Position numbers and translations under genes: made by a program
The notes under the pieces: model-generated
The model's database searches: none
Seen by the model: the letters and a program-made list of their open reading frames with translations, nothing else
Told to the model about the DNA's origin: nothing
Assembly (NCBI GenBank): GCA_964036195.1
Contig: OZ038456.1
Location: forward strand, 12,524,001-12,588,000
Direction: 5' to 3'
Source: Sphaerolaimus hirsutus
Taxonomy: Eukaryota; Nematoda; Chromadorea; Monhysterida; Sphaerolaimidae
DNA length: 64,000 bases
Shown: positions 10,401 through 59,871 of the stretch, piece by piece
Layout: each line of letters opens with the position of its first letter
Numbering within the stretch: the first letter of the stretch is position 1

Positions 10401-13400
10401 ACGCAATACTCAGGTCAGAACTGATCCAAACCAACGTGGCCGCATTCAAGGAAATCATCCCCAACATTCTCAAGCACTCCAAAAATCCCATCATCCTAGT
10501 GGTGTCCAATCCAGTTGACCCACTCACATATGTAGCGTGGAAATTGTCTGGGCTGCCGGCGGGCCAAGTTATGGGCTCTGGCACTAATCTAGACTCTGCT
10601 CGTTTTCGATTCGCTTTATCGCAGCGATTGGGAATCGCGCCGGATTCCGTGCACGCTTGGATCGTGGGCGAGCACGGAGAAAAAAGTGGTGTGTTTGTGG
10701 GTGGTTCCTCGCAGAGTTGTTAAAAGTACTGAACTTTTTTCAAAGTATACGTCAACGTAAAGTATTTATTTTTTACTCACCCCTTGAGTACAGAAAACGT
10801 TAAGTAAATTTTTTTACTTTTACTCATGAGTAAACGTGAGTTAACATACTTTTCCCCACAGAAAACGTAAATGTGGGTACTTTTGAAAAATGTCGCCAAA
10901 ATTTTCGAGAAATGTCGCTCAGAATCACTCATTTTCATAACTTTTTGTCTATTTTACCCACTTTTTGACTATATATTTGGTACTATACCCATTTTCGACT
11001 AGTTTCCCATATTTTAAGCACATTTTCTCCCGTTACTCCCTTTGCTTTTAAAAACCTATAAAAAAAGGTTTTAAAATACGTTTTCTGTACTCAAGTACTT
11101 TCAAAAAGTATACGTAAAAGCGAGTAAATACCAGAACTTTTTTCAGAGGAAACGTAAACGTATTTACTCTGTACTCGAGTATACATATTTATCGAGTAAA
11201 TGTAAATACGTTTTAACAACTATGGTTCCTCGTTTCAAGTACCGTATATACTAGAATAAAGCCCCCGGGTGTTAATATTTTTTAGAAGTTTTGAGGGGGG
11301 TTATTCAAGGGGGATGTTATTCAGCTAAAATTTGTGTTATCTCCATCCATATCATTCAAATATACATTGTGGATACACATGTAAATTAACCAGAGGGCGG
11401 GGGACTTATTCAAGAAGGGATTATTCGATGGGGTACTCAATTGGGGAGTTATTTTATTCTCACCGGCCAACGGGAGGAGTTATTCAAGGGGATGTTATTC
11501 AAGGGGGTCTTATACAAGGATATTTAGTTATTAAACTGAAGTGTACTTTCATAATGATAATTTCTGCCACGAACATTCATTTCAATATAAGGCGCCAAAT
11601 TCTTTAGCTATAAATCGACACTACTCTCGCAGTGGCTGTGTGGTCGGGTGCCAATATCGCCGGTGTTCCACTGAAACAGCTACATCCAACGGTGGGCACT
11701 GAACAAGATGAACAACAGTGGGACAAAGTGCACACTGGAGTTATTCGGTGGTAGGCAGTTTTGAGGGTTCCAAATTCATTGATGAATCAAAAAATTAGAA
11801 TCTCCATCAAAAAAGTCTCACAAAAATGTATCATGTGAACAATATGTCCAGATTTGGAAACCATAAAAACATTTTTCCAACTACCGTATTTCCTCGAAAT
11901 ACCCCCCTCCCTTGAATTAACCCCCTTCCCCCTCGGAATACCGCAGGTGTTTTTGAGCTGAGGAAAAAATAACCCCCCTCGAAATACCCCCATCTTGACT
12001 GATATACATCATGTATACAATGTACATTATGTATTTATTGAGGTCAAATCTCATCGCACCTATATACGTAAAGTAATTTGTATAGCTATCTACATTTGTA
12101 TGTTTTAATACGTCCCGTTTGGTGACGTTTATTACCAGTTTTGGGTATGAAAAAGCCCATACTTTACGACGATATTTATGAAAATTTCTGGATACCGTAT
12201 TTCCTCGAAATACCCCCCGGGGGGTGATTGTTTCATAGTGGTCCCGAGAGGGGGGGGGGTTAAACGAGGGGGGGGGGTATTTCGAGGGGGGGGGGTTATT
12301 GTTTCACAAGAAAAATTTTCAAATCCCAGTACGAAATTGTCGTCTGAAACGTACGCAGACGTCAAAAAATACAACAAAAACCGCCATTTATAAGGTTCTG
12401 TAGACTAATATTAGTATGTAGACAGTATAAACACTGTTCTAACGTGATTACGACATTGTTTTTACCTGTGTTCTGCACTACGCAGAACACAAACTGCAGT
12501 ATTTGTCATGTACGTTCCCTTTACACTCAATTTGGGGGGGGGGGTATTTCGAGGGGGGGGGTGATTGTTTCATAGTGGTCCCGAGAGGGGGGGGGTCAAA
12601 CGAGGGGGGGGGGGGGTATTTCGAGGGGGGGGGGTATTTCGAGGAAATACGGTAAATAATAATCTGGATAAAAAACCTCTCTCGAATAACACCCCACCCT
12701 CGAAATACCCCCCACAAAATTTCCACTCTGAATAAAAAAAAATCCTAGGGGTATTTCGAGGAAATACGGTATTCATCAGCACGACAGGATAACCACATAA
12801 GCACATTTCAGTGTCAACGAAGTGATCTCATTGAAAGGCAGCACTTCCTGGGCAATAAGCCTGTCCGTGGCTGATATAGTGAATGCGATTTTGCACAATG
12901 GACACACTGTGCATGCTGTCACTACCAATGCCAAGGTATGCGCTTGAATGAGTTATTTTTTAGAGTAATAGACTACTGTGCAGACTAGTAGATACTTTCA
13001 CCCATAGAGAAATGGGAGGCTGGGGGTTCCACCACACTTTTGTTTCTTTGAATTTTGTTATGCATTACTCAATTTTGATGCTGTTTGAGTATGTTGGGGT
13101 TTGGGGTTGGGGCTACAACCAAAAAAAAACTTTCCTCTCAATAACTCGCCCCCCCCCCACTCCCGAGATGAGGGGACACTTAAAAACGCATGCATCTTGC
13201 ACGGCAAATCTGATTGAAGCTCAGTAACTCTGCCATTTCTGGGCGAATTTGTACCAGTCCACACTTCAAATCATGGGGCAACCTCTAGAGTTCACTTTTG
13301 AGGTAGGGTTAAACTTAATGATGTCTAAATTTGTTATGCTGATGTGACCCGAGGCCTGTCTCGCAAATTGACAGATGCTTTATTACTCTTGACGCTTGAC

Positions 13401-13790
13401 TTGACTCTTGACATTTCTTTTGACTTTTAACTTGATTCTTCACTTTGTCACTTGCGGAACCAGTGAACAAAGTGAAGAGTCTACCTAGTTGAAAGTCAAG
13501 AGTCGAGTCATGTCACTGTCTCCTGGTGACTCAACATGAAAACCTGTTTTTTAACATGTTACCATATACTTTAGACAAACTTCATTCGACCCACGCTCGC
13601 GCTTTCAATATCTACACAATTCCAGAATCTCCACGGCATTACAACTGACACATTCCTATCGTTGCCGTGCGTTCTGGGCAGGAACGGTATCGAATCTGTA
13701 GTGATGCAAAATCTCAGCTTCGATGAAAAATTGGATTTGACCAAAAGTGCGCATGTGCTGAAAAATGTACAAGATAAAACTGCGCTGTGA
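7439..13790 (+). CDS. LDH-like: L-lactate dehydrogenase-like, complete, copy 1 (7 exons)
   Basis: Exons are 7439-7535, 8046-8288, 9400-9475, 10414-10688, 11633-11747, 12812-12935 and 13626-13790. All boundaries are GT-AG, and together they give 1095 nt, or 364 residues. The start ATG is in ACCATGG context. In order: an N-terminal extension of about 25 residues, the nucleotide-binding GLGTVG, VDCNKDK with the NAD-ribose Asp, [20 protein letters not shown] (substrate loop with catalytic Arg109), [25 protein letters not shown] (Asp168, Arg171), VGEHG (catalytic His195), [22 protein letters not shown] and [10 protein letters not shown]. The enzyme interconverts 2-oxo and 2-hydroxy acids with NAD(H) in the cytosol. 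The loop position normally Gln102 in LDH is Arg here, with one extra loop residue; malate dehydrogenases carry Arg there, so substrate preference is open. An AATAAA lies at 14210-14215. The introns are full of MITEs. Confidence 0.92.
8355..8730. mobile_element. Degenerate CCGTATT-type MITE in LDH intron 2 (copy 1)
   Basis: ATTACCTCAAAATACCCCCC at the left faces GTATTTCAAGGAAATACGAT at the right, with CCCCCTCTAAATGCCCC-type units between. The ends have decayed from the CCGTATTTCC consensus. It is shared with copy 2 (about 25886-26263), so it is an old insertion. Confidence 0.55.
8749..9291. mobile_element. hAT-like MITE, TAGGGTGTCAA ends, haplotype-A-specific
   Basis: Copy 2 has the empty site (around 26271-26286). 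The perfect 8-bp target duplication GACATATT lies at 8741-8748 and 9292-9299. The ends are TAGGGTGTCAAC and GTTGACACCCTA. The interior is full of CCGTTTCCGTTTTCCGG, the complement of the arrays at 2194-2912. It lies in LDH intron 2. Confidence 0.92.
9549..9793. mobile_element. TACTC-ended MITE in LDH intron 3, haplotype-A-specific
   Basis: The site is empty in copy 2 at about 28000-28012. The insert begins TACTCCGGTTACTT, ends at GTACGCTGACTATA and is flanked by ATA/TA. It is the same family as 4000-4247 and 44543-44788. The short frame across it is shared by all three copies because they are the same repeat. Confidence 0.75.
10010..10220. repeat. Degenerate tandem repeat with ATCGAGTTTCGGATG units
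   Basis: Several diverged units of roughly 40-70 bp each contain an ATATCGAGTTTCGGATG-like core followed by TTCATTTTT- or ATTTTTCACC-type sequence. It sits in LDH intron 3. In copy 2 a hAT-like element is inserted into one of these units (28332-29164). Confidence 0.6.
10712..11224. mobile_element. hAT-like MITE, CAGAGTTG ends, LDH intron 4 (copy 1)
   Basis: The perfect 8-bp target duplication GTTCCTCG lies at 10704-10711 and 11225-11232. The TIRs are CAGAGTTGTTAAAA and CATAGTTGTTAAAA. It inserted 16 bp downstream of the exon 4 splice donor. It is shared with copy 2 (29765-30282). Confidence 0.9.
11242..11527. mobile_element. TA MITE, GAATAAAGCCCC subfamily (copy 1)
   Basis: The left end is TA plus CCGTATATACTAGAATAAAG. 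Interior units are GGGGTTATTCAAGGGGGATG and similar. The right end near ACAAGGATATTTAG is decayed. It lies in LDH intron 4, 17 bp after the preceding hAT-like MITE. Confidence 0.6.
11884..12769. mobile_element. TA MITE, CCGTATTTCCTCGAAATACC subfamily, hosting a nested MITE
   Basis: The ends are CCGTATTTCCTCGAAATACC and GGTATTTCGAGGAAATACGG, flanked by TA. Copy 2 has the uninterrupted 427-bp version at 30943-31369. The extra 460 bp here is a second MITE of the same family plus its TA duplication (12195-12652). It lies in LDH intron 5. Confidence 0.88.
12195..12652. mobile_element. TA MITE nested in a related MITE, haplotype-A-specific
   Basis: It is absent from the equivalent site in copy 2 (31253-31255). 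The ends are CCGTATTTCCTCGAAATACC and its complement, with a TA duplication at 12193-12194 and 12653-12654. The interior alternates TATTTCGAGG with G runs of up to about a dozen, plus a stretch reading CATAGTGGTCCCGAGAGG. Close relatives are at 22500-22948 and 41142-41592 (inverted). Confidence 0.92.
13360..13520. repeat. Inverted repeat of GACTCTTGAC-type arms
   Basis: TTGACTTGACTCTTGACATT and, on the other arm, GAAAGTCAAGAGTCGAGTCA are inverted around TCACTTGCGGAACC. It resembles a decayed member of the element at 3244-3648. In copy 2 a retrotransposon tail lies at its right edge. Confidence 0.5.
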
Positions 13791-13922
13791 TGTGATCTTG
13801 ACAAAAACCATGATCTCTAGACTCTAGGATAGGCGTCAATTTTGTGTGTGTGTTTTTGCGGGTAAATTTGAACATTTGTTATTTTTTGGGCTGATGACGT
13901 GTCCGTGTCGTTGTGTGTTCAA

Positions 13923-14089
13923 TAGCGATGGAAAAGCGCCATGGCACTGGCGCCATGGCGCTTTTGGCACTCGGCCTGGCGCCAGAAACAAAAAGCCTGG
14001 CGCTGGCGCTTGCCGCTAGCGCCAAAGCAAAAATCGCGAGGGCGCTTCTGGCGCTTGGTGCCAAAATCCTGGCGCTTTTTCCATCGCTA
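13923..14089. mobile_element. GCGCC hAT-like mini-element (copy 1)
   Basis: The perfect 8-bp target duplication GTGTTCAA lies at 13915-13922 and 14090-14097. The ends are TAGCGATGGAAAAGCGCC and GGCGCTTTTTCCATCGCTA. The 167 bp between are GGCGC/GCGCC repeats. Copy 2 has it at 35497-35692, about 29 bp longer. Confidence 0.9.
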
Positions 14090-14530
14090 GTGTTCAATTT
14101 TTTCAAACGAAAGATTTACATAGGTCATTCCGTCTAGAAATATTCGTGCATTTGTTCCACTCGAGTTATATTGAAAAATATGTACCCCGAGATAATCATA
14201 CAGACAATCAATAAAATTGATGAAAAGTTATTTCATTGAAATGCAGCATATAAGAAGCCAGAATCCATCAATCAAACGGCTTATTTTTCAAGAGATAAAT
14301 TTTTCTAAAATATCAGTGTCCAGGTAATGTCTACAACTCTACAAGGAAGAATATCTAGCTAGGTGCATGCATTTTTGTAGTGGGTGGAACAGTCATGTCT
14401 TTCAGTATCGCGTTTTAAACTTTCGGTTTGCAGTTTCCGTATCCTATTAACTGTAGCTTGTTCAGATAGTACATGAATAGAAGGTCGTTAAAATAATGCG
14501 TAAAGTTACACCGTGAATGGAAGTACAAAA

Positions 14531-14700
14531 CAACAGTGTTGCAAAAACGTATTGATGTTTACCCGAAATACCCGGGTATTTTGGTATTATCCTTACGTTT
14601 ATGTTTACGTTTTAGGAAAATACCATTACATTTGCAAATGTTTTGCAGCAAGTTCTCAAGGCAGAGTTGTTAAAATAATGGTATTTTTTAGAAAGTGTAA
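14531..14700. mobile_element. Partial CAGAGTTG-family hAT-like element
   Basis: CAGTGTTGCAAAAACGTATT at the left and GGCAGAGTTGTTAAAATA at the right enclose CCCGGGTATTTTGGTATTAT and ACGTTTATGTTTACGTTTT. The termini do not pair cleanly and no target duplication is visible, so it is probably a rearranged copy. Copy 2 lacks about 178 bp just to the right (14682-14857). Confidence 0.45.
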
Positions 14701-14814
14701 GATAGCTAAATACACCTTCCAAATGTTAAGATTTTCTACTAAAGCATATTTAGGTATTTTTCAAATAACAACAAAAGCATAAAAAAGCGTATCACATCAA
14801 AAAATGTGCTCATG

Positions 14815-15085
14815 AAGTGCACTGAAAAGGTCTGAAGTGCCCCTTGTGATCACACTTCAGAGCCTGATCACACCTGATCACCGGGCACTTCACTGCCTGT
14901 GATCACACTTCAGAGCCTGATCACGCCTGATCACCGTTGGAATGCACTTCACCGACACTTTGTTCATTATGTTTACTAAATTGGGATTTGTTTGCTAAAT
15001 TGATTACAGAAATAAAAAATTTGAAATTCGTGAAGTGTGTTGAAGTGCCTGCAAGGGTCTGCGTGAAGACACTTCACCGCAGATA
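14815..15085. repeat. GATCACACTTCAGAGCCTGATCAC repeat region
   Basis: The TGATCACACTTCAGAGCCTG unit occurs twice, with further GAAGTG/CACTTC motifs up to ACACTTCACCGCAG. A similar GAAGTG-rich region is at 54180-54700. The type of element is unclear. Confidence 0.5.
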
Positions 15086-15441
15086 ACGACAGATCACTAG
15101 CACAGTTTTTGCTGTGTATGATGTAAATACCTCTGAACCTGTAAACAATCTATACGTGCCACCACTTAAAAGAATTTTTTTCTTATATAAAAGATGCCTG
15201 GTTGCTAATTGGAAATTATTTGTGCATTTATACAACTTATTCCACCGACTGCACACTGGCTGTAGTTGTACATGACTATATTTGTTTACCCTGTTGACTA
15301 TAGTTTTCAAAGGTTCCTTGCGCTGCATATAAAGCTGATGTTGGTGAAGTTTTTCAGTTCCTACCATAGCCAGCCCATTACAACACAGAACAGCAGTAAC
15401 AATTTTTATTTTTTTTAAACAAAAACCGTGATTTGATTGCA

Positions 15442-16626
15442 CTAAGATTGAAACATAGAAATGACAAAATCTCTGAAAACGTGAGAACATTCAGCAAAAG
15501 TGTAGCAATTAAAACTCTGTCGAATATAAGTCAGCAATTGACACCCTAAACTTCCAACGACAATAACCCTTGCCTGGATCACAATGACATTCTGTACACT
15601 GTCTGGCATTCTACACCATGTATGCTTAATAATGAAACATGTAAAACATAAAGAAACAATTAAAATGCAGCATTTGATACCACAAAACATGATCACACAC
15701 AATGCAGCAAAAAGTGCAGCTACAATTGGAGATGACATAAAATTTTCTACCTTCACATGCACCTTTGAAACTCTTAAATAGAGCAAAGAAATGGAGTAGA
15801 TGCTAAGCGCGATTAAAAAAGCTAAGAAGCATGTCAGTGAACAAAATTGACAGATTAGTGTCATGCACATGGCTGTGATGCTGACAATTGCATTTAGGTT
15901 TGAGGGATGGCTGCCAGATGGTTTTTGTTGTGGATCGTCCAATTCCTGTGGATTGGTGATTTTTGATCAGATAAGAAAGTGAGGATCAGAAAATACCATG
16001 TATGCTAAAATAAGACCTCCCCTTGAATAACATCCCCACTTGAATAACTCCCCCTATCAGCAGGTGACGAAAAAAAAACTCTCCCCTCCCCCTTGGATAA
16101 GATCCCCTTTGGATAGAATAAATCCCCCTCCAAAGGATCTTACAAAATGTGGTACCATGTGGTCTTATTTGAGGATATACAGTACATATAAAAGCCCAAA
16201 TTCCCAATTCCCATATTCAATGTGCAACATATTAGTTGCAAATCAAATGTAAATTCCTAAAACTCACAGCTTTCCAACCAACCTCTAAAAATTCAAAAGT
16301 TACCCAGGAATCATTGGGCTCATTGACAGCCAATTTCATATTGTATCTGGAACATATGGGCCCAAAAATGCTTGCTAGACGTTGACTGTGACTTTTTGAT
16401 GTTGTATTTGATGTTGGCATACTTTCATCAACACTGTCAGGTATTTCTTCCACATCTGATAAATTACTCGTTCCACAATTTTCATCTTTGGCTGGATCTT
16501 CACAATTTAGAATCAATTTGTCTCCTTTCCCAGCTTTATCTTCAGCTATCATTTGTTCAATTTTCTTTTTTGTTCTGTCCACCATTTCTGATGGGAATAG
16601 GTAGGATAAATTTAGCACTGTGGAAT
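15442..16626 (-). CDS. Unidentified multi-pass membrane protein, two exons, copy 1
   Basis: The upstream exon is 16268-16626 and the downstream exon runs from 15945 to at least 15568, open to a stop at 15442. The junction GCT|GTGAGT ... CACAG|GAA keeps phase 0. The first exon encodes a hydrophilic, acidic segment (LSYLFPSEMVDRTKKKIEQ, then Asp/Glu/Ser-rich, then WVTFEFLEVGWKA). The second has DDPQQKPSGSHPSN and then three or four hydrophobic stretches rich in Cys. The gene is partial at its 5' end because the first exon begins in mid-codon; earlier exons would lie at higher coordinates. The exon could instead end at a donor near 15568. I do not recognise the family. Copy 2 keeps the same frame with a few substitutions, which supports coding. 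Confidence 0.7.
16004..16190. mobile_element. GAATAA-type TA MITE in the intron of the membrane-protein gene (copy 1)
   Basis: ACCATGTATGCTAAAATAAG faces CTTATTTGAGGATATACAGT. Interior units CCTTGAATAACATCCCC and GGATAAGATCCCC match the family. It lies between the two exons and is present in both copies (copy 2 about 37424-37612). Confidence 0.6.
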
Positions 16627-16950
16627 CTGCAGGACAAAAAAAAACAGGTTTTAACATGTTTCCTTCTTTGAATGACAAGGGATTCAATTCAACTTCAAAA
16701 AGGAGATCACATATTCATCACTTGAGTCCTAATTGAATATTTCGGGCATGAATCCCCCCAGATATTTATGTTAGCAATGTAGTTCTCACATCTCACAACT
16801 TATCTTCACATCAAAAAAATTACATCAACAAAAGAGTGAATTTTCCCGGAACCCCCCCCCCCCCATTTAAAACCACCTTCAAAATCAGGATTCATTTGCA
16901 AGAAAACCGCAGTGGCGGCCCTCCGATCGGCGGAACCAGCGGCCGCTTGT

Positions 16951-17150
16951 NNNNNNNNNNNNNNNNNNNNNNNNNNNNNNNNNNNNNNNNNNNNNNNNNN
17001 NNNNNNNNNNNNNNNNNNNNNNNNNNNNNNNNNNNNNNNNNNNNNNNNNNNNNNNNNNNNNNNNNNNNNNNNNNNNNNNNNNNNNNNNNNNNNNNNNNNN
17101 NNNNNNNNNNNNNNNNNNNNNNNNNNNNNNNNNNNNNNNNNNNNNNNNNN
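16951..17150. other. Assembly gap of 200 N
   Basis: Exactly 200 undetermined bases separate the two copies of the duplicated block. The round length suggests a placeholder gap of unknown true size. Confidence 0.99.
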
Positions 17151-17338: not shown

Positions 17339-18998
17339 ACATCTACATGAGAAGCTGCGGGGAGGCGGTCACAAAATGGCTTCTTTACTGGCTCTTAATT
17401 CCACTTGCCGGCACTTCCCTAGCAATATGTTTGTTCATTTATTTGAGTGCCCAAATAAAGTACTGTCCCACTCTGAATAAATAAACAGTGTGCAAGTGCA
17501 TCAGTTCATAGGGTGTCAACAAAATTTTTTTACGGAAAACGGAAACGGAAACGGAAAAAAAATCTCAGCGGCCGGAAAACGGAACGGAAAACGGAAAAAA
17601 ATTTGCACTTAGCGGAAAACGAAAACGGAAACGGAAAAATGGGCCGGAAAAACGGAAACGGAAAAATGAAATAAGCGCGGAAACGGAAAAAAAAATGATG
17701 AAATTTCAAATTTGCCGGAAAATAGAAAAATTGCTGAAATTGTACATGTTGTACATACTTACTTTTTCAATAAAACAATATCTATTTAAAGTATCTCATC
17801 TAAAAGAGAAATTGAGGTTCACTAACTGCCCAGTCTCAGCGCGCGCGCAACTCCAACCCCTGCCAGTCCGCTACCTTTAAAACACAAAACGATTTTTTTA
17901 GTTTTTTTTATATAAATATTTTCATTCGATTTAGATACATAGAAATAGATCAGAAGCGGCACAAAACAGCTAAACTGTGAAATATGATAGGCACAGGTGT
18001 TGTTTTAGTGAAGTGAAACATACCGTATTTGCTTGAATAATCCCCCTGGGGGATTATTATTTCGTCAGACTTTTTTGAGGGGGGAACTATTCAAGGGGGG
18101 GAACTATTCGAGGGGGGGAATTATTGTTTCGTCAAAATTTTCAAGCATGTTTCTATCAACACATTTAATGAAAAATGCTTTATTAACACAAGAACGTGCC
18201 ATTTTTGTTAATATTGGGTACAAACAATTGATCAAATCTTTTAAGGGGGGAATTATTCGAGGGGGGGAATTATTATTTCCTCACTCGTCTTACACGGGGG
18301 ATTATTCGAGGGGGGGAATTATTCAAGGGGGGGGAATTATTCAAGCAAATACGGTATATACACTGGAAGAATAGCTAAAACACATTGTTGGCAAAATACT
18401 GGGGGAAAAACAGAAAATATAGCCGGAAAACGGAAAAAAAAGCGGAAAAACTGAAAATTTAGCCGGAAAACGGAAAATGAGCCGGAAAACCGGAAACGGA
18501 AACAAAAGTGGCCAGAAAATGGAACGGAAAACGGAAAAAAATTTCAGCAGCCGGAAAACGGAAACGGAAGACAGAAATTTGACACCCTATCAGTGCATTA
18601 TTTCTCTGTCTCTGCGAACTACCACATTTCCTCGAAATACCCCCTCAAAATGCGCACTGAAAAAACACCCCCTCTCCCTCTCGAAATAACCCCCTCGTTT
18701 AACCCCCCTAAAAATTTCCACTCTGAAATAATGAATGGAATTTGCAAATTGCCAAAAATAACACTTAGGCGCTGCACACACTTTGATAGAAACAAACCGT
18801 GAGTTTAGTTGTTCAGTCTAAAATAAATGTTTTGCATGCACAGGCATTCTACTGATATCCACATCCATAATTGGCCACATTGTGCAGAAAAGGACGATTT
18901 CTGTGCTCAAAGACAAAGTAGGACTTTCAGATGAAAAAGTGCCCGACGATCAGGTGCCAAATCCGCAAATGGAGAGGTATAATGACAACTTAAACTGA
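17339..18998 (+). CDS. Tetraspanin last two exons, copy 2
   Basis: Exons 17339-17428 and 18844-18998 match 2024-2113 and 3134-3270 of copy 1. They encode the last loop Cys, TM4 and the cytosolic tail. The preceding exons fall in the gap. The codon that is the TAA stop in copy 1 (3268-3270) is TAT here (18978-18980). The frame runs six codons further, through YNDNLN, to a TGA at 18996-18998. The intron hosts a hAT-like element with a nested MITE. If the haplotype reading is right, this is the other allele of the gene at 636-3270. Confidence 0.75.
17509..18589. mobile_element. hAT-like MITE, TAGGGTGTCAA ends (copy 2), hosting a nested MITE
   Basis: The target duplication is TCAGTTCA (17501-17508) and TCAGTGCA (18590-18597), as in copy 1. 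The AAACGG arrays differ slightly in repeat number from 2194-2912. A 332-bp TA MITE is inserted at 18023-18354. Confidence 0.88.
18023..18354. mobile_element. TA MITE, CCGTATTTGCTTGAATAATC subfamily, haplotype-B-specific
   Basis: The empty site in copy 1 (2679-2682) shows a clean TA duplication (18021-18022, 18355-18356). The TIRs are CCGTATTTGCTTGAATAATC and its complement. The interior repeats GAATTATTCGAGGGGGGG several times. Length is 332 bp. Confidence 0.93.
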
Positions 18999-22347: not shown

Positions 22348-23315
22348 CCGCATTTACTCGAATAATTCCCACAAGGAATGATCTTTTCGTCAGACATTTT
22401 TTAGAGGGGGACTATTAGAGGGTGGGGGATTATTCAAGGGGGAATTATGTTTTCATCAGAATTTTCAGTTATGTTTCTATCAATTCATCTCATGATATAC
22501 CGTATTTCCTCGAAATACCCCCCGGGGGGTGATTGTTTCATAGTGGTCCCGAGAGGGGGGGGGTTAAACGAGGGGGGGGGTATTTCGAGGGGGGGGGGTC
22601 ATTGTTTCACAAGAAAATTTTTGAAAACCAAGTACGAAATAGTCGTCTGAAACGTACGCAGACGTCGAAAAATGCAACAAAAACCGCCATTTATAAGGTT
22701 CTGTAGACTAATATTAGTATGTAGATGGTATGTACACTGTTCTAACGTGACACCGACATTGTTTTAACGTGTGTTCTGCACTACGGAGAACACAAACTGC
22801 AGTATTTGTCATGTACGTTCCCTTTACACTCAATTTGGGGGGGGGTATTTCGAGGGGGGGGGTGATTGTTTCATAGTGGTCCCGAGAGGGGGGGGGTCAA
22901 ACGAGGGGGGGGGTATTTCGAGGGGGGGGGTATTTCGAGGAAATACGGTATGCTTTATTACAAAAATACAAAGGCAAAAAGCCAATAAAATTTGTAAAAA
23001 AGTCATACGACATTGTCAAACGATATGTAATAAATATATGATATGATGCCAAAGGCCTGGCGCATTTTCCACCACTGTCTACATTCGTTTTTCGCCCTGT
23101 ACACATTCCATTGCATTTTTTCACACCGGATGTGCATTCACTGAATCATACCAGACACCAGACGCAGCTATTTGCTTGCACTGGCTTAATCATTGTTTTT
23201 TAAGGATATGGGCAGTATTTTTTCTTCCATTGGTAGTGGGGATAATTCTGAGCGGGATTCTCACTCTTCTAACAGTGAGAATTATCCCAGGGGTATTTTT
23301 TGAGTAAATACTCGG
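22348..23315. mobile_element. GAATAATTCCC-type MITE (copy 2) hosting a nested MITE
   Basis: Counterpart of 6423-6950. It starts TA plus CCGCATTTACTCGAATAATT. A 449-bp MITE of another subfamily sits inside at 22500-22948. The right boundary is approximate. Confidence 0.5.
22500..22948. mobile_element. TA MITE, CCGTATTTCCTCGAAATACC subfamily, haplotype-B-specific
   Basis: It is absent from copy 1 near 6553. TA flanks at 22498-22499 and 22949-22950 bracket perfect TIRs. The interior, with CATAGTGGTCCCGAGAGG and long G runs, matches 12195-12652 closely. The same MITE has therefore inserted at different loci in the two haplotypes. Confidence 0.92.
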
Positions 23316-29800: not shown

Positions 29801-32800
29801 TACGTCAACGTAAAGTATTTATTTTTTACTCACCCCTTGAGTACAGAAAACGTTAAGTAAATTTTTTTACTTTTACTCATGAGTAAACGTGAGTTAACTT
29901 AACATACTTTTCCCCACAGAAAACGTAAATGTGGGTACTTTTGAAAAATGTCGCCAAAATTTTCGAGAAATGTCGCTCAGAATCACTCATTTTCATAACT
30001 TTTTGTCTATTTTACCCACTTTTTGACTATATATTTGGTACTATACCCATTTTCGACTAGTTTCCCATATTTTAAGCACATTTTCTCCCGTTACTCCCTT
30101 TGCTTTTAAAAACCTATAAAAAAAGGTTTTAAAATACGTTTTCTGTACTCAAGTACTTTCAAAAAGTATACGTAAAAGCGAGTAAATACCAGAACTTTTT
30201 TCAGAGGAAACGTAAACGTATTTACTCTGTACTCGAGTATACATATTTATCGAGTAAATGTAAATACGTTTTAACAACTATGGTTCCTCGTTTCAAGTAC
30301 CGTATATACTAGAATAAAGCCCCCGGGTGTTAATATTTTTTAGAAGTTTTGAGGGGGGTTATTCAAGGGGGATGTTATTCAGCTAAAATTTGTGTTATCT
30401 CCATCCATATCATTCAAATATACATTGTGGATACACATGTAAATTAACCAGAGGGCGGGGGACTTATTCAAGTAGGGATTATTCGATGGGGTATTCAATT
30501 GGGGAGTTATTTTATTCTCACCGGCCAACGGGAGGAGTTATTCAAGGGGGGTGTTATTCAAGAGGGTCTTATACAAGGATATTTAGTTATTAAACTGAAG
30601 TGTACTTTCATCATGATAATTTCTGTCACGAACATTCATTTTAATATAAGGCGCCAAATTCTTTAGCTAGAAATCGACACTACTCTCGCAGTGGCAGTGT
30701 GGTCGGGTGCCAATATCGCCGGTGTTCCACTGAAACAGCTACATCCAACGGTGGGCACTGAACAAGATGAACAACAGTGGGACAAAGTGCACACTGGAGT
30801 TATTCGGTGGTAGGCAGTTTTGAGGGTTCCAAATTCATTGATGAATCAAAAAATTAGAATCTCCATCAAAAAAGTCTCACAAAAATGTATCATGTGAACA
30901 ATATGTCCAGATTTGGAAACCATAAAAACATTTTTCCAACTACCGTATTTCCTCGAAATACCCCCCTCCCTTGAATTAACCCCCTTCCCCCTCGGAATAC
31001 CGCAGGTGTTTTTGAGCTGAGGAAAAAATAACCCCCCTCGAAATACCCCCATCTTGACTGATATACATCATGTATACAATGTACATTATGTATTTATTGA
31101 GGTCAAATCTCATCGCACCTATATACGTAAAGTAATTTGTATAGCTATCTACATTTGTATGTTTTAATACGTCCCGTTTGGTGACGTTTATTACCAGTTT
31201 TGGGTATGAAAAAGCCCATACTTTACGACGATATTTATGAAAATTTCTGGATAAATAATAATCTGGATAAAAAAACCTCTCTCGAATAACACCCCACCCT
31301 CGAAATACCCCCCACCAAATTTCCACTCTGAATAAAAAAAAATCCTAGGGGTATTTCGAGGAAATACGGTATTCATCAGCACGACAGGATAACCACATAA
31401 GCACATTTCAGTGTCAACGAAGTGATCTCATTGAAAGGCAGCACTTCCTGGGCAATAAGCCTGTCCGTGGCTGATATAGTGAATGCGATTTTGCACAATG
31501 GACACACTGTGCATGCTGTCACTACCAATGCCAAGGTATGCGCTTGAATGAGTTATTTTTTAGAGTGATAGACTACTGTGCAGACTAGTAGATACTTTTC
31601 ACCCATAGAGAAATGGGAGGCTGGGGGTTCCACCACACTTTTGTTTCTTTGAATTTTGTTATGCATTACTCAATTTTGATGCTGTTTGAGTATGTTGGGG
31701 TTTGGGGTTGGGGCTACAACCAAAAAAAAACTTTTCCTCTCAATAACTCCCCCCCACTCCCGAGATGAGGGGGCACTTAAAAACACATGCATCTTGCACG
31801 GCAAATCTGATTGAAGCTCAGTAACTCTGCCATTTCTGGGCGAATTTGTACCAGTCCACACTTCAAATCATGGGGCAACCTCTAGAGTTCACTTTTGATG
31901 TAGGGTTAAACTTAATGATGTCTAAATTTGTTATGCTGATGTGACCCGAGGCCTGTCTCGCAAATTGACAGATGCTTTATTACTCTTGACGCTTGACTTG
32001 ACTCTTGACATTTCTTTTCACTTTTAACTTGATTCTTCACTTTGTCACTTGCGGAACCAGTGAACAAAGTGAAGAGTCTACCTAGTTGAAAGTCAAGAGT
32101 CGAGTCATGTCACTGTCGAGTCATGTCCCTTATACACTGAATGCACTAGCTTGTCAAATTTCCATAAATTGCTCATGTTTATTGCGGTTTATATTTTGGC
32201 TCATATTTAGTAGTGCGTTTATCATCTCACTTACGGTATGTAATGTAAAGGTGCTATTATTGTACGTGTGTTAGCCATGGGACGCTAGGATGGCTTATGT
32301 TGCGGTCCTACGGCCAACGATGGGTAAGTTCTCCAAAAAAAAACACTTTCTGTGTTTTGAGTTTTTCAAAAATGAATACCTGTGTTTTGAGTTTTTTTCT
32401 TGAAAAAAACTTGAGTAACTCTGTTTTTATTTCTGTGTTTTTTGTAAAAACTTGAGTTTTTTGAGTTTTTTCTAAAAAAACTCGAGTTTTTTTCCAAAAA
32501 ATTCAAGTTTTCCCCCCTAAAATTTTTATTTACAGCATTTCGATCTGGAAACAGTGGTTTTCTTATAAAATATTGGTTTTGCACATGTTTTAACCACACA
32601 TAACATTTGTGTATTCATTCAAGTGTCAAAAAAGTCCTTTAAAATGTCCACAATGAGGACATCAACATCACAACACCAGCAACAAAATGCCCAGAAATGA
32701 CAATTTACACAGTTATGAGTTTCCGTGTTTCTGTGTCTCCAAAATTCTTCTGATGTGCACTGTATGGAAGACTACGGAATTGATTTGAACTACAACTATC

Positions 32801-39844: not shown

Positions 39845-40173
39845 TAGAGTGTTGCGCTGAAAATGTCCATCGCGCCACACTTACGCGGCAATGGCACCAA
39901 ACCTACGAGCACCACAAAGCCCCCACAAAAAGCCCAACATTTCAGCCTTCCTGGCGTGCAGGTGCGCCGCCCGTCTGTGCTCCACCGCCTGTTTTCTCAA
40001 TTGGCGCCAATCGCTGTCCCCCGTGGCGCTGGAGCCCAGGCTGCGAAGAAACACTTCAAAGATGGGGATTGTAGTGAATGGTGCGAGAGCGCCAATGGCG
40101 TTTTGCGTTTGGCGCTTGGTCTTTTTTGCTGTGGCGCTATTGGCGCTTGACGCTATTTTTCCTTGGCGCCAGG
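39845..40173. mobile_element. GCGCC-type element, interrupted
   Basis: Scattered GGCGCC, GGCGCT and GGCGCAA motifs continue up to TTGGCGCCAGG at 40173. A second element (40174-40433) interrupts the sequence, after which CGCCAGGAACAAAACGCCTG resumes. The termini are not certain. Confidence 0.5.
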
Positions 40174-40433
40174 TAGGGTTGGGAACCCGACCCGATCCGA
40201 CCCGACCCGACCCGACCCGACCCGACCCGACCCGACCCGACCCGACCCGACCCGACCCGACCCGACCCGACCCGACCCGACCCGACCCGATCCGACCCGA
40301 ACACGATACCCGACCTCAATACCCGAACCCGAACCCGAACCCGACACCCGCAAAACTTTTGGAACCAATACCCGACCTGTAATTTTTAGGACCTGATACC
40401 CGATCACCAAAAATTTCTAAATTCACAACCCTA
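40174..40433. mobile_element. hAT-like MITE, TAGGGTTG ends, with a (CCCGA)n array
   Basis: The ends are TAGGGTTGGGAACCCGA and AATTCACAACCCTA. The flanks GCGCCAGG (40166-40173) and TCGCCAGG (40434-40441) form an 8-bp duplication with one mismatch. Between lie about twenty tandem CCCGA units (about 40186-40300), then diverged ACCCGA units to about 40400. Open frames over it are repeat translations. Confidence 0.82.
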
Positions 40434-41141: not shown

Positions 41142-41592
41142 CCGTATTTCCTCGAAATACCCCCCCCCCTCGAAATACCCCCCCCCTCGAAATACCCCCC
41201 CCCTCGTTTGACCCCCCCTCTCGAGACCACTATGAAACAATCACCCCCCCCCCCTCGAAATACCCCCCCCAAATTGAGTGTAAAGAGAACGTACATGACA
41301 AATACGGCAGTTTGTGTTCTACGTAGTGCAGAACACACGTTAAAACAATGTCGGAATCACGTTAGAACAGTGTACATACCATCTACATACTAATATTATT
41401 CTACAGAACCTTATAAATGGCGGTTTTTGTTGCATTTTTCGGCGTCTGCGTACGTTTCAGACGACAATTTCGTACTTGGTTTTCAAAAATTTTCTTGTGA
41501 AATAATAACCCCCCCCCCTCGTTTAACCCCCCCCCCCTCTCGGGACCACTATGAAACAATCACCCCCCGGGGGGTATTTCGAGGAAATACGG
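41142..41592. mobile_element. TA MITE, CCGTATTTCCTCGAAATACC subfamily, inverted orientation
   Basis: The ends CCGTATTTCCTCGAAATACC and complement are flanked by TA (41140-41141, 41593-41594). The interior carries C runs and CTCTCGAGACCACTATG, the complement of the 12195-12652 and 22500-22948 interiors. Confidence 0.92.
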
Positions 41593-45485: not shown

Positions 45486-45730
45486 CCGTATTTCCTCGAA
45501 TTAGCCCCCTCGAAATACCCACTTCGAAATACCCCCAGGTCTAGACGAGCTGAGGAAAAAATACCTCCCCCCTCGAAATACCCCCAGTCTGCAATGATGT
45601 ACATCACGTATGCAATGTATTTACCTTCATGATGTATTTATTGGGACCACTTCGCATTGCAGCTATACAGAGTAGTTTGTATTTTCAGTCTGAAAAAAAA
45701 CCCTGGGGGTATTTCGAGGATATACGATAT
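45486..45730. mobile_element. TA MITE, CCGTATTTCC subfamily, short and worn
   Basis: The left end is TA plus CCGTATTTCCTCGAATTAGC. The right end is TTTCGAGGATATACGAT. Interior units CCTCGAAATACCC are present. Confidence 0.7.
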
Positions 45731-46592: not shown

Positions 46593-47022
46593 CCGTATTA
46601 CCTCGAATTACCCCCCCCCCTTGAATTAACCCCCCCCCCCCCTCGAAATACCCCCCCTAAAATTCGGCTGAGGAAATAATAAACCCCCCCTCGAAATACC
46701 CCCCCCTAAATTGAGTGTAAAGAGACGTACATGACAAATACCGCAGTTTGTGATCTGTACACTGCATAACACACGTTAAGAGTGATGATCAAGTGACGTT
46801 AGGGAAGGTCTTTTGTGTATATACAGTTACATATCCCTATAAACACATATACATCGACGTAATTGTTCGATTTTTCAACGTCTGCGTATGGGGAATTTCC
46901 GAAAATTTCTGGCGAAATAATAAACTCCCCCTCGAATAAACCCCCCCCCACTCGAATTATCCCCCCCTGAAATTTTGCTGGCGAAATAATAAACCCCCTG
47001 GGGGTATTTCGAGGTAATACGG
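46593..47022. mobile_element. TA MITE, CCGTATTACCTCGAATTACC subfamily
   Basis: The ends are CCGTATTACCTCGAATTACC and GTATTTCGAGGTAATACGG, with TA on both sides. Interior repeats read TTGAATTAACCCCC and CTCGAATTATCCCCC, changed in step with the terminal sequence. Relatives are at 48897-49299, 55643-56067 and 56285-56674. Confidence 0.9.
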
Positions 47023-48404: not shown

Positions 48405-48783
48405 CCGTATTTCCTCTAAATACCCCCAGGGGGGTCTTTTTTTCAGAGTGCAAATTTTGAGGTGGTATATCCAGGGGGCTTATTCGAGGAGGTTTTTTTC
48501 CCCAGAAATTTTCGAGGTGGATCGTAATAAAGATTGGGTTTTACATACCCAAAACTGGTAATAAACGTAATAAAACATAATGCATTTAGACGTATCAACG
48601 TAGATGGCTACAGAAACTAGTCTGTGTGTAGCTGCGATGCATATAGGCAGCAATTAATACAATGTGTACATTGCATAAATACATGATGAAACTTATTCTA
48701 GACGGGGGTGGGGGGTTATTTTTCCTCAGCTCGAAAAGACCTGGGTGTATATCGAGGGGGGTTGATTCAAGGGGGGTATTTAC
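48405..48783. mobile_element. TA MITE inside a GCGCC-type element
   Basis: The left end is TA plus CCGTATTTCCTCTAAATACC. The interior has GGGCTTATTCGAGGAGG and GATTCAAGGGGGGTATT. The right end is worn. GCGCC motifs on both sides (48293-48380 and 48783-48830, ending CTTTTCCATCACTA) suggest it was inserted in a GCGCC element. Confidence 0.65.
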
Positions 48784-48896
48784 AGCGCCACTAACTTGTC
48801 AGATCTTTAAAGCGCCATGACGCCACTTTCCATGATGCTTTTCCATCACTACCCAAGACTACAAGATCACAATCTGCCTCAGTAAATAAATACATA

Positions 48897-49299
48897 CCGT
48901 ATTACCTCGAATTAACCCCCCCCCCCTTGAATTAACCCCCCCTCGAATTAACCGCCCCCTCAAAATGGGCTGGGGAAATAATAAACCCCCCTTCGAAATA
49001 CCCCCCAAATACAGTGTAAACGGCATGTACACAACAAATACCACAGTGTGTGAACTGCATTATGCACAAGTTAAAACCGATGACTGAGTGACGTTAGGGA
49101 AGGATTTATGTGCATATACAGCTGTATATGCACATAAACACTCATACGTCTCTGACAATGTTGTATTTTTCTACGTCTGAGTATGGGGAATTTCGTAAAA
49201 TTTCTGTCGAAATAATAGACCCCCCCCCTCGAATTAACCCCCCTCAAAATTTGCTGGCGAAATAATAAACCCCCATGGGGGTATTTCGAGGTAATACGG
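48897..49299. mobile_element. TA MITE, CCGTATTACCTCGAATTAAC subfamily
   Basis: Complete ends with TA flanks (48895-48896, 49300-49301). Interior units are CTTGAATTAACCCCCC and TCAAAATTTGCTGGCGAAAT. Confidence 0.9.
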
Positions 49300-49347
49300 T
49301 AAATACACATGTACAATATATTTATTTATATTTACAGTTTTTCTCTG

Positions 49348-49649
49348 AAATCTCACCTCGAATTAAACCCCCTCGAATTAAACCCGTCGAACTTGAACTG
49401 GGTATGTACTACGTAAATACATTATGTGAGCTGATTTATTGAGTAGTAAATAAATAATCGGTTTTTACGAGTTAAGTACTCGTATTTTAGTGATGATAAC
49501 CTTCACATCTGGGTATAAAAATTCAAAAAATAGGTCATCAACTTTCAAAACAAAACATGGTGAAAAAAGCCCCCCTCGAATAAGCCCCCCACAAAAACAT
49601 TTGCTGGCGAACTTATAACCCCCAGGGGTGATACTACGAGGAAATACGG
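49348..49649. mobile_element. TA MITE, worn left end
   Basis: The right end ACGAGGAAATACGG plus TA is clear. The left part CACCTCGAATTAAACCCCCT lacks the CCGTATT terminus. Confidence 0.6.
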
Positions 49650-51726: not shown

Positions 51727-51734
51727 CTGCCAAG

Positions 51735-52535
51735 CAGAGTTGTTAAAAGTACTGAACTTTTTTAAAAGTAAACATAAACATAAAGTATTTTTCTTTTACT
51801 CACCCCTGTCTACAGAAAATGTAAAGTATTTTTAAAATACTTTTACACTGCGTAAAACATGAGTAAAATACCTTTTTCAGAGAAAACGTTAAAACGAGGG
51901 TTTTTTCTGGGGAAAACAAAAAATGAGTATTTTTTCTCACAGAAAACGTAAAAGTTAGTATTTTTCACACAAAAAGACAGTATTTTTTGAATTTTTACTC
52001 TGATAGACAAAAATACCGTATTTCCACAAAATACCCCCCCCCCCTTCAAAATACCCACCCTCAAAATGGGCACTATGAATTTGTGGTCTGGGAAATGCAT
52101 AACAGACATTCAAAACACTTACTGTGTTACGTTAGAACATTGTTTATACCATCTACATCCTTATATAAGGCTGTAAAAACTTATAAATGGTGGTTATTGT
52201 TGCATTTTTCACTTGTTTCTCTCAAAATTCTCACTCTGAAAAAATAAACCCCATGGGGGTATTTCGATGAAATATGGTATGTGTATTTAATAAGTGTTTA
52301 AATTGAATTTTGAAATAAGTATTTCTTAGGAAAATGTCTTATGTTTTTCACTTTCTGTTTGGCAAAATGACAATTTCTGTCCCCTAAAAATATGTTTTCT
52401 GTACTCGCGTAATTTCAAAAAGTATGCCAGTAAGTCAGTACCGGTATTTTTTTCACGATGAAACGTAAACGTATTTATGCAGTACTCGAGTATCCCTAAA
52501 TATCGAGTAAACGGAAATACGTTTTAACAACTATG
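51735..52535. mobile_element. hAT-like MITE, CAGAGTTG ends, hosting a TA MITE
   Basis: The perfect 8-bp duplication CTGCCAAG lies at 51727-51734 and 52536-52543. The TIRs are CAGAGTTGTTAAAA and CATAGTTGTTAAAA. A TA MITE is nested at 52016-52277. Confidence 0.92.
52016..52277. mobile_element. TA MITE nested in a hAT-like element
   Basis: TA plus CCGTATTTCCACAAAATACC at the left faces GTATTTCGATGAAATATGG plus TA at the right. Interior CTTCAAAATACCC units follow the altered terminal sequence. Confidence 0.85.
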
Positions 52536-52543
52536 CTGCCAAG

Positions 52544-55642: not shown

Positions 55643-56067
55643 CCGTATTACCTCGAATTAACCCCCCCCCTTGAATTAACCCCCCCCTCGAAATACCCCC
55701 CCTAAATTTCGGCTGAGGAAATAATAAACCCCCCCCTCGAAATACCCCCCCTAAAATTGAATGTAACGTGAACGTACATGACGAATACCGCAGTTTGTGA
55801 TCTGTACAATGCAGAACACACGTTAAAACTGATGATAAAGTGACGTCAGGGAAGGGTTTTTGTGTATGTACAGTTATATATGCCTATAAACACATATACA
55901 TCTATGTAATTGTTCAATTTTTCTACGTCTGCGTATGGGGAATTTCCGAAAATTTCTGGCGAAACAATAGACCCCCCCCTCGAATAAACCCCCCCCTCGA
56001 ATTGTCCCCCCCTCAAATTTTGCTGGCGAAATAATAAACCCCCTGGGGGTATTTCGAGGTAATACGG
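55643..56067. mobile_element. TA MITE, CCGTATTACCTCGAATTAAC subfamily
   Basis: Complete ends and TA flanks (55641-55642, 56068-56069). The interior is nearly the same as 46593-47022, including ACGTACATGACGAATACCGC and the TATACATCTATGTAATTGTT centre. Confidence 0.92.
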
Positions 56068-56284: not shown

Positions 56285-56674
56285 CAGTATTACCTCGCAT
56301 TAACCCCCCCTTTGAATTAACCCCCCCCCCTCGAAATAACCCCTACAAATTGGCTGAGGAAATAATAACCCCCCCCTCGAAATACCCCCTAAAATTGAGT
56401 GTAAAGAGAACGTACAAGACAAATACCGCAGTTTGTGATCTGTACAATGCAGAACACACGTTAAAACTGATGATTGAGTGACGTTATGGAAGGGTTTGTG
56501 TATATATAGTTATTTATGCCTTTAAACACATATACATCTATGTAATTGTTTGATTTTCCTACGTCTGAGTATGGGGAATTTCCAAAATAAATCGACCCCC
56601 CTCGAATTAACCCCCCTCAAATTTTGCTGGCGAAATAATAAACCCCCTGCCTTGGGTATTTCGAGGTAATACGG
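56285..56674. mobile_element. TA MITE, CCGTATTACC subfamily, left end C(C/A)GTATT variant
   Basis: The left end reads CAGTATTACCTCGCATTAAC and the right end GTATTTCGAGGTAATACGG, with TA flanks. Same interior as 55643-56067. Confidence 0.88.
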
Positions 56675-57786: not shown

Positions 57787-58369
57787 TTCACCAAGCTTCT
57801 GTATGAAATATATTGAATTTTTCATTGGATTTAGAAATTCAATGTTTTTTATGGTTGACAAGTATAATCCTGTTTGGATATTCATGAAAATGTTAAGACA
57901 TTTGTATAATCTGTAAAACAAAGCTAGATGTTATTTCACTTTATTGCACTCAATTTTCTTATAATCAAGCACCAGCACAAATAAATGCTATCAAAATGCA
58001 AATATTTATAATTTTCACATTCTCTGAAACATGTAACATGAAATAACCATCATCTAATAGCCAATCTTCTATCATTTTAAATAGAAATTACCCACGTAGG
58101 GATGTGAGACACTTACTGCTGAAAGACACCAAAAGTTTTATCAATTCACACAGTGATAATTTTGATGAGCAAAACATGAGGTGGAAAAAAATTGGATTGT
58201 AACCACCTTACATTGTATTTTTATCTTGCTCATGTTATTGGCCTCATTTGTATGCAGTGTACATCAGACTTGCCACGCTTTGCCAGACCGATCCCTTGGG
58301 GAACACAGTCACTGGAGTTTGCATGTAAAATGACACAAGCTTGGCCTCATTCAGAATAATTTATCACAA

Positions 58370-58759
58370 CTACAAACAAATGCAAAACAAAAAGATCACA
58401 GTTAAACAATACTGCAGAACAGAACTGGCACTTAGCCAAACTGTATGTACACCACCACTATTAACACCATTCAGCCCACTGACACTTTTGCCATCAGAAT
58501 CATTGGGCAACTTATTGTACCTATCCGGGTCTGGTCTCAAGTGCCCTGGCAATGATTTACTGGCTGAACTTGTGTTCGCATTGCACAAACTCGTGTCGCA
58601 CAGCCATTGTTCAACTCCAAGCACATTTCTATAGACAGTCTTTCTCTGGTCAGGGTCACTACTGGTGACGCAGCCCTTGGTGTATCTGTATTGTCTGCCA
58701 GGTAGAGTGGGGTCCCTGGTCTTCATGATAATGCATGTGCTCCCTGTGCAGGTTTGGTC
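58370..58759 (-). CDS. Ly6/uPAR-domain protein, terminal exon with GPI-type tail
   Basis: After an acceptor CCCCCCACAG the exon opens with DQTCTGSTCIIMKTRDP. It continues with GRQYRYTKGC, LGVEQWLCDTSLCN (the CN that closes an Ly6 fold) and a Ser/Gly/Asn linker. It ends in a hydrophobic stretch (VWLSASSVLQYCLTVIFLFC) at the stop, 58370-58372. That order suggests a secreted, GPI-anchored surface protein. The first Ly6 Cys pair and the signal peptide must be on upstream exons I cannot place. The exon is in phase 0. It could therefore be the last exon of the gene at 60651-62996 if that gene splices after NVR near 60822 instead of using its own tail. Confidence 0.72.
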   Translation of the reverse strand, partial: DQTCTGSTCIIMKTRDPTLPGRQYRYTKGCVTSSDPDQRKTVYRNVLGVEQWLCDTSLCNANTSSASKSLPGHLRPDPDRYNKLPNDSDGKSVSGLNGVNSGGVHTVWLSASSVLQYCLTVIFLFCICL

Positions 58760-58832
58760 CTGTGGGGGGTTGGTGATTGTGTTTTGATTGGATTTGATTT
58801 GATGCAATAAATGAAATAGATGAAATAAAATT

Positions 58833-59871
58833 GAGGCATCCAGTTTTAAAAGTCAATAAGCCATAATATTAAAATCTTGAGTTAGGCGCGGAAACGTCAG
58901 CTGGGGCTTTTCCTGCATAATTTTCCATCAATTTTTCACTGCATGGGGAAAATGCAACAAACTTGGGCAAGAAGTCGACAAGTCCACTTAGTTTGGGCTA
59001 AAAGTCTGCAACTCCATCCTCCAACTCCCTTTTTGTTGGAAAAAAAGCAAAACAATGTTATACGTCCACTATGGACACAGATTTCTAAAAGTTGATACCG
59101 TATTACCTCTAATATAAGGTATACCTTATATTGTTTTCGTCAGATTTTTAGAGCCAAAAGTTATACCTTATATTAGAGGGTACCTTATATTAGAGGGTAC
59201 CTTCAATTTTGTTCGCCAGATTTTCGTCTGGTCAACAATTCAAAGTTTCTCTTAGAGTGAATGGTGCTGTCGGTAAACTGACACACTTTTCAGCGGCGGA
59301 ATTCGACGAAGAGTCATCGCAGTGCCCTTCGGCGCCATTTTCATCATTTTCTGCCATGTTTAGCAACCATTTTTATTATTTTGCATGTTTTGGCACGCAG
59401 CCAGCTGTGCCTTATTAGAGGTATGCCTTATATTAGAGGGTACCTCATATTTATTTCGTCGCGTTCAAAATAGCCTTAAGTTATACCTTATATTAGAGGG
59501 TACCTTATATTAGAGGGATGCCTTATATTGGAGGTAATACGGTAAGTCCATAAATTGCCTATAAGGCAGCCTCGGCCTCCCCGGGAACAAAAATGTTCTC
59601 GCGTGCAAGAAGTTGACAAGTCCATTTCCCTCACCAAAACAGTTTTGCTCTGACCAAATGGAATTTTATGGACACACCATTTTTCACATATAGGTTGAGG
59701 GTAGGGGCAGAAAATTTGACACTTAATTGTCAACATATGGAACTTTATGGAAAGCATGAGAGAGCCAAATTGGACACGCGCCACGGGCCTGGAACTGTGT
59801 CTGAAACTTAAAATGCGATTTACTCAAAATCTCATTTTGTGGTCTTGCTGACTTTTAGATTTAGAGGCCTC
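58833..59871. mobile_element. GAGGC-ended element with 4-bp target duplication, hosting a nested MITE
   Basis: The ends are GAGGCATCCAGTTTTAAAAG and CTTTTAGATTTAGAGGCCTC. The AATT flanks lie at 58829-58832 and 59872-59875. Internal AAGTCGACAAGTCCACTTAG-like motifs recur. It is the same family as 26365-27837, with collinear segments on both sides of the nested insert. Confidence 0.85.
59098..59542. mobile_element. TA MITE, CCGTATTACCTCTAATATAA subfamily
   Basis: The ends are CCGTATTACCTCTAATATAA and TTATATTGGAGGTAATACGG, with TA flanks (59096-59097, 59543-59544). The interior repeats ACCTTATATTAGAGGGT at least five times, exactly following its own TIR. It interrupts the GAGGC-ended element. 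Confidence 0.92.

What the first reader, a model, noticed from the sequence alone, without database searches (positions are those of the whole stretch)
11884..59542. TA MITEs whose internal repeats change in step with their own terminal repeats
All members share CCGTATT at the tip and a TA target, but the next bases differ by subfamily: CTCGAAATACC (12195, 22500, 41142), CTCGAATTAAC (46593, 48897, 55643), CTTGAATAATC (18023), CTCTAATATAA (59098). In each element the interior carries many copies of that same subfamily-specific motif. Terminal and internal repeats therefore seem to evolve together, as if the internal motif is a transposase-binding repeat homogenised with the tip, or elements grow by duplicating their ends. 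I know of no standard MITE family described this way.
Basis: partly seen in the sequence, partly recalled or inferred. Interest (0 to 1): 0.75.

Follow-up and report, generated by a model that had tools for sequence, protein, structure and literature searches.

The report
Jumping DNA with matched end codes
Many thousands of short jumping DNA pieces in this genome share one 7-letter tip, and in several subfamilies the letters just behind the tip recur in repeats inside the same piece, probably because each repeat is a docking site for the enzyme that moves it.

Summary
The elements are real TA-inserting MITEs. Three named copies (12195, 22500, 18023) have clean empty sites in the window's own tandem duplication, with a TA duplication. 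One 18-base tip occurs 25,681 times genome-wide, its reversed control 0. The in-step claim is partly right. Subfamilies a, c and d carry their own tip word inside. Over eight subfamilies (nine representatives) the tip arm fits its own inverted copy better than under any other assignment (1 of 362,880), though single copies are noisy. It fails for subfamily b: 7 of 7 complete copies carry b-type words at one end and a-type at the other, and 6 of 7 hold exact a-words inside. Elements 30943 and 45486 also mix. New anatomy: one end is a head-to-tail array of 15-17 bp units, the other a tip unit facing its own inverted copy. A genome-wide test of one base pair gave no sign of copy-level homogenisation (1 double change, 0.26 expected). 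Best reading: a fixed outer core (CCGTATT) plus reiterated, lineage-specific transposase-binding units, on the principle of CACTA subterminal repeats and Galileo, in a TA-inserting MITE. No autonomous partner was found; the Tc1-like and Harbinger-like loci read have other ends where these could be seen.

The parts
22500..22948 (+). Subfamily a element, palindrome (H) end left, array (A) end right; unit CTCGAAATACCCCC
   Evidence: TA on both sides; empty site at 6556-6557 in the duplicated segment; units
12195..12652 (+). Subfamily a element nested inside an older a-tipped element
   Evidence: Empty site at 31252-31253
41142..41592 (-). Subfamily a element, array end left
18023..18354 (+). Subfamily c element; unit CTYGAATAAT(T)CCC; 11-bp end palindrome AATAATCCCCC-T-GGGGGATTATT
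   Evidence: Empty site at 2679-2680; stem
59098..59542 (+). Subfamily d element; unit CTCTAATATAAGG; 11-bp end palindrome AATATAAGGTA-TACCTTATATT
46593..47022 (-). Subfamily b element, mosaic: array end CTCGAATTAC, palindrome end CTCGAAATAC
48897..49299 (-). Subfamily b element; array end CTCGAATTAAC, palindrome end CTCGAAATAC
55643..56067 (-). Subfamily b element, mosaic
56285..56674 (-). Subfamily b element with one mutated tip (CAGTATT)
11884..12769 (-). a-tipped element with mixed interior, interrupted by 12195-12652
   Evidence: Uninterrupted duplicate at 30943-31369
30943..31369 (-). Duplicate of the above without the nested insertion; interior holds CTTGAATTAAC although both tips are CTCGAAATAC
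48405..49649 (.). Probable degenerate outer element (tips CTCTAAATAC and CTCGTAGTATC) that contains 48897-49299
52016..52277 (-). Shorter a-like element with mutated tips
45486..45508 (+). b-like tip (CTCGAATTAG) followed by a-type units; far end of the element not fixed
6423..6485 (+). c-type palindrome end without an exact partner
6556..6557 (.). Empty TA site corresponding to 22500-22948
31252..31253 (.). Empty TA site corresponding to 12195-12652
2679..2680 (.). Empty TA site corresponding to 18023-18354

Best explanation
These are non-autonomous cut-and-paste elements that insert at TA. The end is modular: a fixed outer core (CCGTATT, presumably for cleavage and joining) followed by one copy of a 15-17 bp unit that is most likely the binding site of the transposase. 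More copies of the unit lie inside: a head-to-tail array at one end (A end), and at the other end (H end) a tip unit facing an inverted copy. Subfamilies differ in the inner letters of the unit (the 'specifier'), which therefore change at tip, inverted copy and array together; the likely cause is that each lineage must keep its sites readable by its own transposase, helped by occasional duplication or template switching between units in the amplifying lineage rather than by steady repair of each copy. Shown: TA insertion, modular anatomy, correlation between subfamilies, mosaic exceptions, no copy-level compensation at one tested base pair. Inferred: that the unit is a transposase-binding site, that the specifier shift follows the transposase, and that the partner is a Tc1/mariner-type or other TA-inserting transposase.
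For: Empty sites with TA duplication. Asymmetric anatomy with internal units pointing as the A tip does. Tip word found in its own interior more than in others: H-tip word, permutations reaching the observed total 48, 8 and 2 of 5040 at 0, 1 and 2 mismatches; A-tip word 120, 5 and 56 of 5040 (one element for each of 7 subfamilies). Tip arm against inverted arm: own assignment alone reaches its score in 362,880 permutations of 9 representatives (8 subfamilies) and in 5040 of 7, and in 40,320 with means over 23 copies of 8 subfamilies. Alike stretch after the variable arm in b, c, d and f. Precedent for reiterated binding sites in other superfamilies (passages).
Against: No transposase with these ends was found: of ten Tc1-like loci read (L035-L044) nine have inverted repeats of their own of other sequence and one could not be delimited; the ten DDE_Tnp_4 loci read end elsewhere; DDE_1 gave 0, which the tool says does not show absence. 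Subfamily b and elements 30943, 45486, L038 and L043 mix units of two types. Copy by copy the inverted arm is often no better than a foreign one: own strictly best in 4 of 23, at least equal in 14 of 23, below the foreign mean in 2 of 23. Of 91 one-mismatch tips only 5 have a stem of 6 or more, no more than random stretches. Subfamily e shows no clear internal array. No binding was measured.
Confidence: 0.55

Rival explanations
1. Founder effect only: each subfamily arose when one tip was duplicated inward a few times; units match because they are copies of one tip, without any binding role.
For: Arrays are head-to-tail and the A tip is simply the first unit of the array; no copy-level homogenisation was seen.
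Against: The H end lies about 300-450 bp away in opposite orientation and matches too in a, c and d; the stretch behind the variable arm is alike in b, c, d and f although their units differ, which points to change within a pre-existing layout.
Confidence: 0.25
2. Mutational homogenisation: slippage, unequal exchange and palindrome template switching continually copy one unit onto the others within each element.
For: Direct arrays and near-palindromes are substrates on which such processes act (general knowledge, not tested here); mosaic elements show that units of two types can come together.
Against: At the tested base pair 36 left, 26 right and only 1 double variant among 3,677 copies; single copies with a mutated tip and an unchanged inverted arm occur, e.g. 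L013:9116, L009:9228.
Confidence: 0.12
3. The end palindrome is kept for a hairpin or cruciform needed in transposition or for silencing by small RNA, and the array is a by-product.
For: Tip arm and inverted arm covary over subfamilies; 30 of 84 exact tips have a stem of 6 or more against 354 of 4000 random stretches of the same loci.
Against: Direct copies in the array carry the same specifier, which a hairpin does not need; A ends have no such hairpin (stems of 1-5).
Confidence: 0.08

Closest known systems
CACTA (En/Spm, Tgm) elements with subterminal repeats
   Same: Conserved short tip, reiterated family-specific motif behind it in direct and inverted copies that can form stem-loops, different numbers at the two ends, divergence of the motif within one species (passages of PMC2613891).
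   Different: There a 3-bp target duplication, CACTA tip, and a motif apart from the 13-bp terminal repeat that a separate protein binds; here TA, CCGTATT, and the motif is itself the inner part of the terminal repeat.
Galileo (P superfamily, Drosophila)
   Same: Tandem repeats in the ends that hold secondary transposase-binding sites; chimeric copies between subfamilies (passages of PMC3573991).
   Different: Long TIRs, 7-bp target duplication, about 210-bp repeat unit; here 15-17 bp units and TA.
Tetris foldback element (Drosophila virilis)
   Same: Internal tandem repeats that share a stretch with the outer part of the TIR (passages of PMC4079207).
   Different: About 220-bp units, foldback ends, feeds satellite arrays.
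Tc1/mariner-type MITEs (TA target)
   Same: TA target duplication and small size.
   Different: The Tc1-like inverted repeats seen in this genome are other sequences; no partner shown.

Membership tests
MITE (non-autonomous inverted-repeat DNA transposon) | Short, terminal inverted repeats, target-site duplication, high copy number | tested here: met
   22 of the 25 pairs are 262-486 bp; TA duplication with 3 empty sites; 25,681 exact 18-base tips genome-wide
MITE (non-autonomous inverted-repeat DNA transposon) | No transposase gene inside | tested here: inconclusive
   Most pairs are under 500 bp, too short for a transposase; the ORFs inside window elements look like translated repeats, but none of them was given to the Pfam scan
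Tc1/mariner superfamily (IS630) | TA target-site duplication | tested here: met
Tc1/mariner superfamily (IS630) | A DDE/D transposase of this superfamily with the same ends | tested here: inconclusive
   DDE_3 23 matches, ten loci read, none ended by CCGTATT where delimited (9 of 10); mariner 4 and HTH_Tnp_Tc5 1 match, not read; DDE_1 0, no proof of absence by the tool's own caution. Not filed as a member
CACTA (CMC) | CACTA-type tip and 3-bp target duplication | tested here: not met
   Tip CCGTATT, TA duplication
CACTA (CMC) | Reiterated family-specific subterminal motif | tested here: met
Galileo / P superfamily | 7-8 bp target duplication and THAP transposase | tested here: not met
   TA duplication only; THAP not searched
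PIF/Harbinger | DDE_Tnp_4 transposase with these ends | tested here: inconclusive
   163 matches (150 of 306 candidates scored); the ten loci read end elsewhere; a second DDE_Tnp_4 type (L045) was read without fixing its ends
ISL2EU | HTH_Tnp_4 transposase with these ends | not tested
   Search for PF13613 was unanswered four times

The most novel reading that the evidence does not exclude
One transposon lineage with a re-writable address: a constant outer core plus a specifier that is repeated at every binding site and rewritten in all sites together, so that many distinct families (about eight specifiers seen here) live side by side in one genome, with mosaics such as subfamily b as the intermediates.
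Probability: 0.35. Interest if true: 0.65.

Novelty: new variant of a known kind. Interest (0 to 1): 0.45.

Why it matters
How a transposon changes the sequence its transposase recognises, when every copy must still be recognised, is an open question. Here one genome holds many thousands of copies in several specifier classes with an alike framework and apparent intermediates, so the order in which sites change could be read directly. It also warns that tip-based and repeat-based classification of such MITEs can disagree.

Tried and rejected
Autonomous partner. DDE_1: 0 matches, with the tool's caution that nothing rang anywhere. DDE_Tnp_4: 163 matches, 150 of 306 candidates scored; of the ten loci read (L025-L034) one holds an exact TA+CCGTATT (L027:3379), outside the aligned block, and the blocks end at about L028:3313-3322, short of a tip-like site. 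DDE_3: 23 matches; of ten loci read nine have inverted repeats of 57-493 bp of other sequence (e.g. TAAACCCACGTTTACTTGG, TAAACTGCCGGCAG), one (L035) none found. L042 looked for a moment like a partner, because a-type units flank its Tc1-like gene; read closely, the Tc1-like element has its own ends (TACAGGACCGATCACTCAC) and sits inside an a-like MITE. HTH_Tnp_Tc5 1 and mariner 4 matches were not read for lack of letters.

Literature. By sequence words (20 of 46,050 listed, 20 of 32 listed) I saw nothing that looked like this family; by topic words (20 of 36 listed, 10 of 131) no title shown names it. That it is undescribed rests on these listings only; Repbase and Dfam were not available. Other collections: TACCGTATTTNCTCGAATAA gave 0 in viral contigs and 1 in genome contigs, in a haloarchaeal record, not followed. 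A likeness to Tigger/pogo ends and to tips of other marine animals was recalled from memory and tested by nothing here. The species was not identified.

Weak points of my own tests. In one search the f element was taken 7 bp too long at one end, so its A-tip word is wrong there. Representatives were chosen by me as readable copies, c twice in the nine; one search adds copies and is weaker per copy, with a-b comparisons left out of 'others'. Loci L002 and L008 (overlapping L001 and L007) were dropped. The unit parser also picks up loose matches such as CTCAATTT and misses units of e, f and g.

Full report
Place. The window is G000:C9:12524001-12588000 of a 348.5 Mb assembly in 762 contigs. Size and content suggest a eukaryote, probably an animal; the species was not identified.

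The elements are real. CCGTATT occurs 30 times in the window, 5.97 expected, 28 of 30 after TA. The window holds a tandem duplication (about 1836-16950 against 17151-38376, aligned blocks 91-99% identical). It gives three empty sites: 22500-22948 is absent at 6556-6557, 12195-12652 at 31252-31253, 18023-18354 at 2679-2680; each time the aligned halves overlap by exactly TA. Most simply, subfamilies a and c moved after the duplication. Genome-wide the 18-mer CCGTATTTCCTCGAAATA occurs 12,763 + 12,918 times (reversed control 0 + 0), and TACCGTATTNNNNNHAAT, which excludes CTCGAA tips, 5,206 + 5,078 times (control 29 + 22). In 16 stretches of 10 kb taken at fixed positions on four contigs (L009-L024), 37 exact TA+CCGTATT tips were found, which scales to about 80,000.

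Anatomy. Elements are asymmetric. At the A end the tip is the first of several head-to-tail units, e.g. CTCGAAATACCCCCC. At the H end the tip unit is followed at once by an inverted copy, e.g. GAATAATCCCCC-T-GGGGGATTATT (c) or TAATATAAGGTA-TACCTTATATT (d), then by a stretch that is alike in b, c and d (TTTCGCCAG or TTTCGTCAG, an A/T-rich stretch, GAG) and, in its first part, in f (TTTCGTCAAC); a has TTTCAGAGTG or TTTCATAGTG there. Apart from loose parser matches, internal units point as the A tip does; only the H tip opposes them. Of 84 exact tips examined, 30 have a stem of at least 6 bp against 354 of 4000 random stretches of the same loci; of 91 tips with one mismatch only 5 do.

Are tip and interior in step? 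With one element for each of 7 subfamilies the H-tip word recurs in its own interior more than under permuted labels (48, 8 and 2 of 5040 at 0, 1 and 2 mismatches); the A-tip word gives 120, 5 and 56 of 5040. For the inverted arm of the H end no other assignment reaches the own one in 5040 (7 subfamilies) or 362,880 permutations (9 representatives of 8 subfamilies), nor in 40,320 when means over 23 copies are used; but single copies are noisy: own strictly best in 4 of 23, at least equal in 14 of 23, below the foreign mean in 2 of 23. So the relation is one between lineages, blurred in single copies.

Exceptions. Subfamily b is a mosaic: 7 of 7 complete copies have b-type words at the A end and a-type at the H end, and 6 of 7 hold exact a-words inside (not 48897). 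Element 30943-31369 has a-tips with a b-type unit inside, 45486 a b-like tip with a-type units, and L038 and L043 have a-like tips with CTCGAATTAC inside. A strict rule is therefore false.

Homogenisation. For one base pair in the palindrome of a/b H ends the four genome-wide counts are: unchanged 3,614, left changed 36, right changed 26, both 1. Independence predicts 0.26. This is one pair and one kind of change, but it gives no sign of repair of one arm from the other in individual copies.

Partner. Transposases were sought by Pfam family in the own genome: DDE_1 0 (no proof of absence), DDE_3 23, Transposase_1 4, HTH_Tnp_Tc5 1. Of the ten DDE_3 loci read, nine have inverted repeats of their own; in one of them, L042, the Tc1-like element lies inside an a-like MITE but has its own ends. 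The listed DDE_Tnp_4 matches are mainly of one high-copy type, of which ten loci were read; it ends elsewhere. HTH_Tnp_4 could not be tested. The partner remains unknown; it may be rare, lost or of another superfamily.

Interpretation. The simplest model is a two-part end: fixed core plus a lineage-specific binding unit, reiterated for avidity. CACTA elements and Galileo work on that principle, and the CACTA paper notes divergence of the motif within one species and raises co-evolution with the binding protein (passages read). What is different here is that the unit is itself the inner part of the terminal repeat, that the element inserts at TA and is of MITE size, and that about eight specifiers coexist, several on an alike framework. 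The binding role is inference; a pure founder effect is the main rival.

Noticed in passing
1836-16950 and 17151-38376: Tandem segmental duplication with aligned blocks 91-99% identical, including an exon-like stretch of lactate dehydrogenase (10184-10723 and 29378-29776; Pfam Ldh_1_N E 1.5e-13); useful for dating insertions.
   Followed up: partly
L025-L034: High-copy DDE_Tnp_4 (Harbinger-type) transposon, 163 matches in the genome; the other nine loci are 89-99% identical to L028: recent burst.
   Followed up: partly
L036-L044: Low-copy Tc1-like transposons of several types with inverted repeats of 57-493 bp and interrupted reading frames; the one in L042 is inserted in an a-like MITE.
   Followed up: partly
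L003:580 (strand -) and L003:843-1326: Subfamily e tips (CTCCAATCAAAGC) without a clear internal array; at L003:580 the tip is followed by an inverted copy.
   Followed up: partly
39861-40382: Open frame with a PDPTR repeat, a short minisatellite.
   Followed up: no
58370-58852, strand -: Open frame that matches Pfam DUF7622 (E 2e-10).
   Followed up: no
about 16950-17150: Run of unknown residues in the translations (gap or withheld bases) at the junction of the duplication.
   Followed up: no
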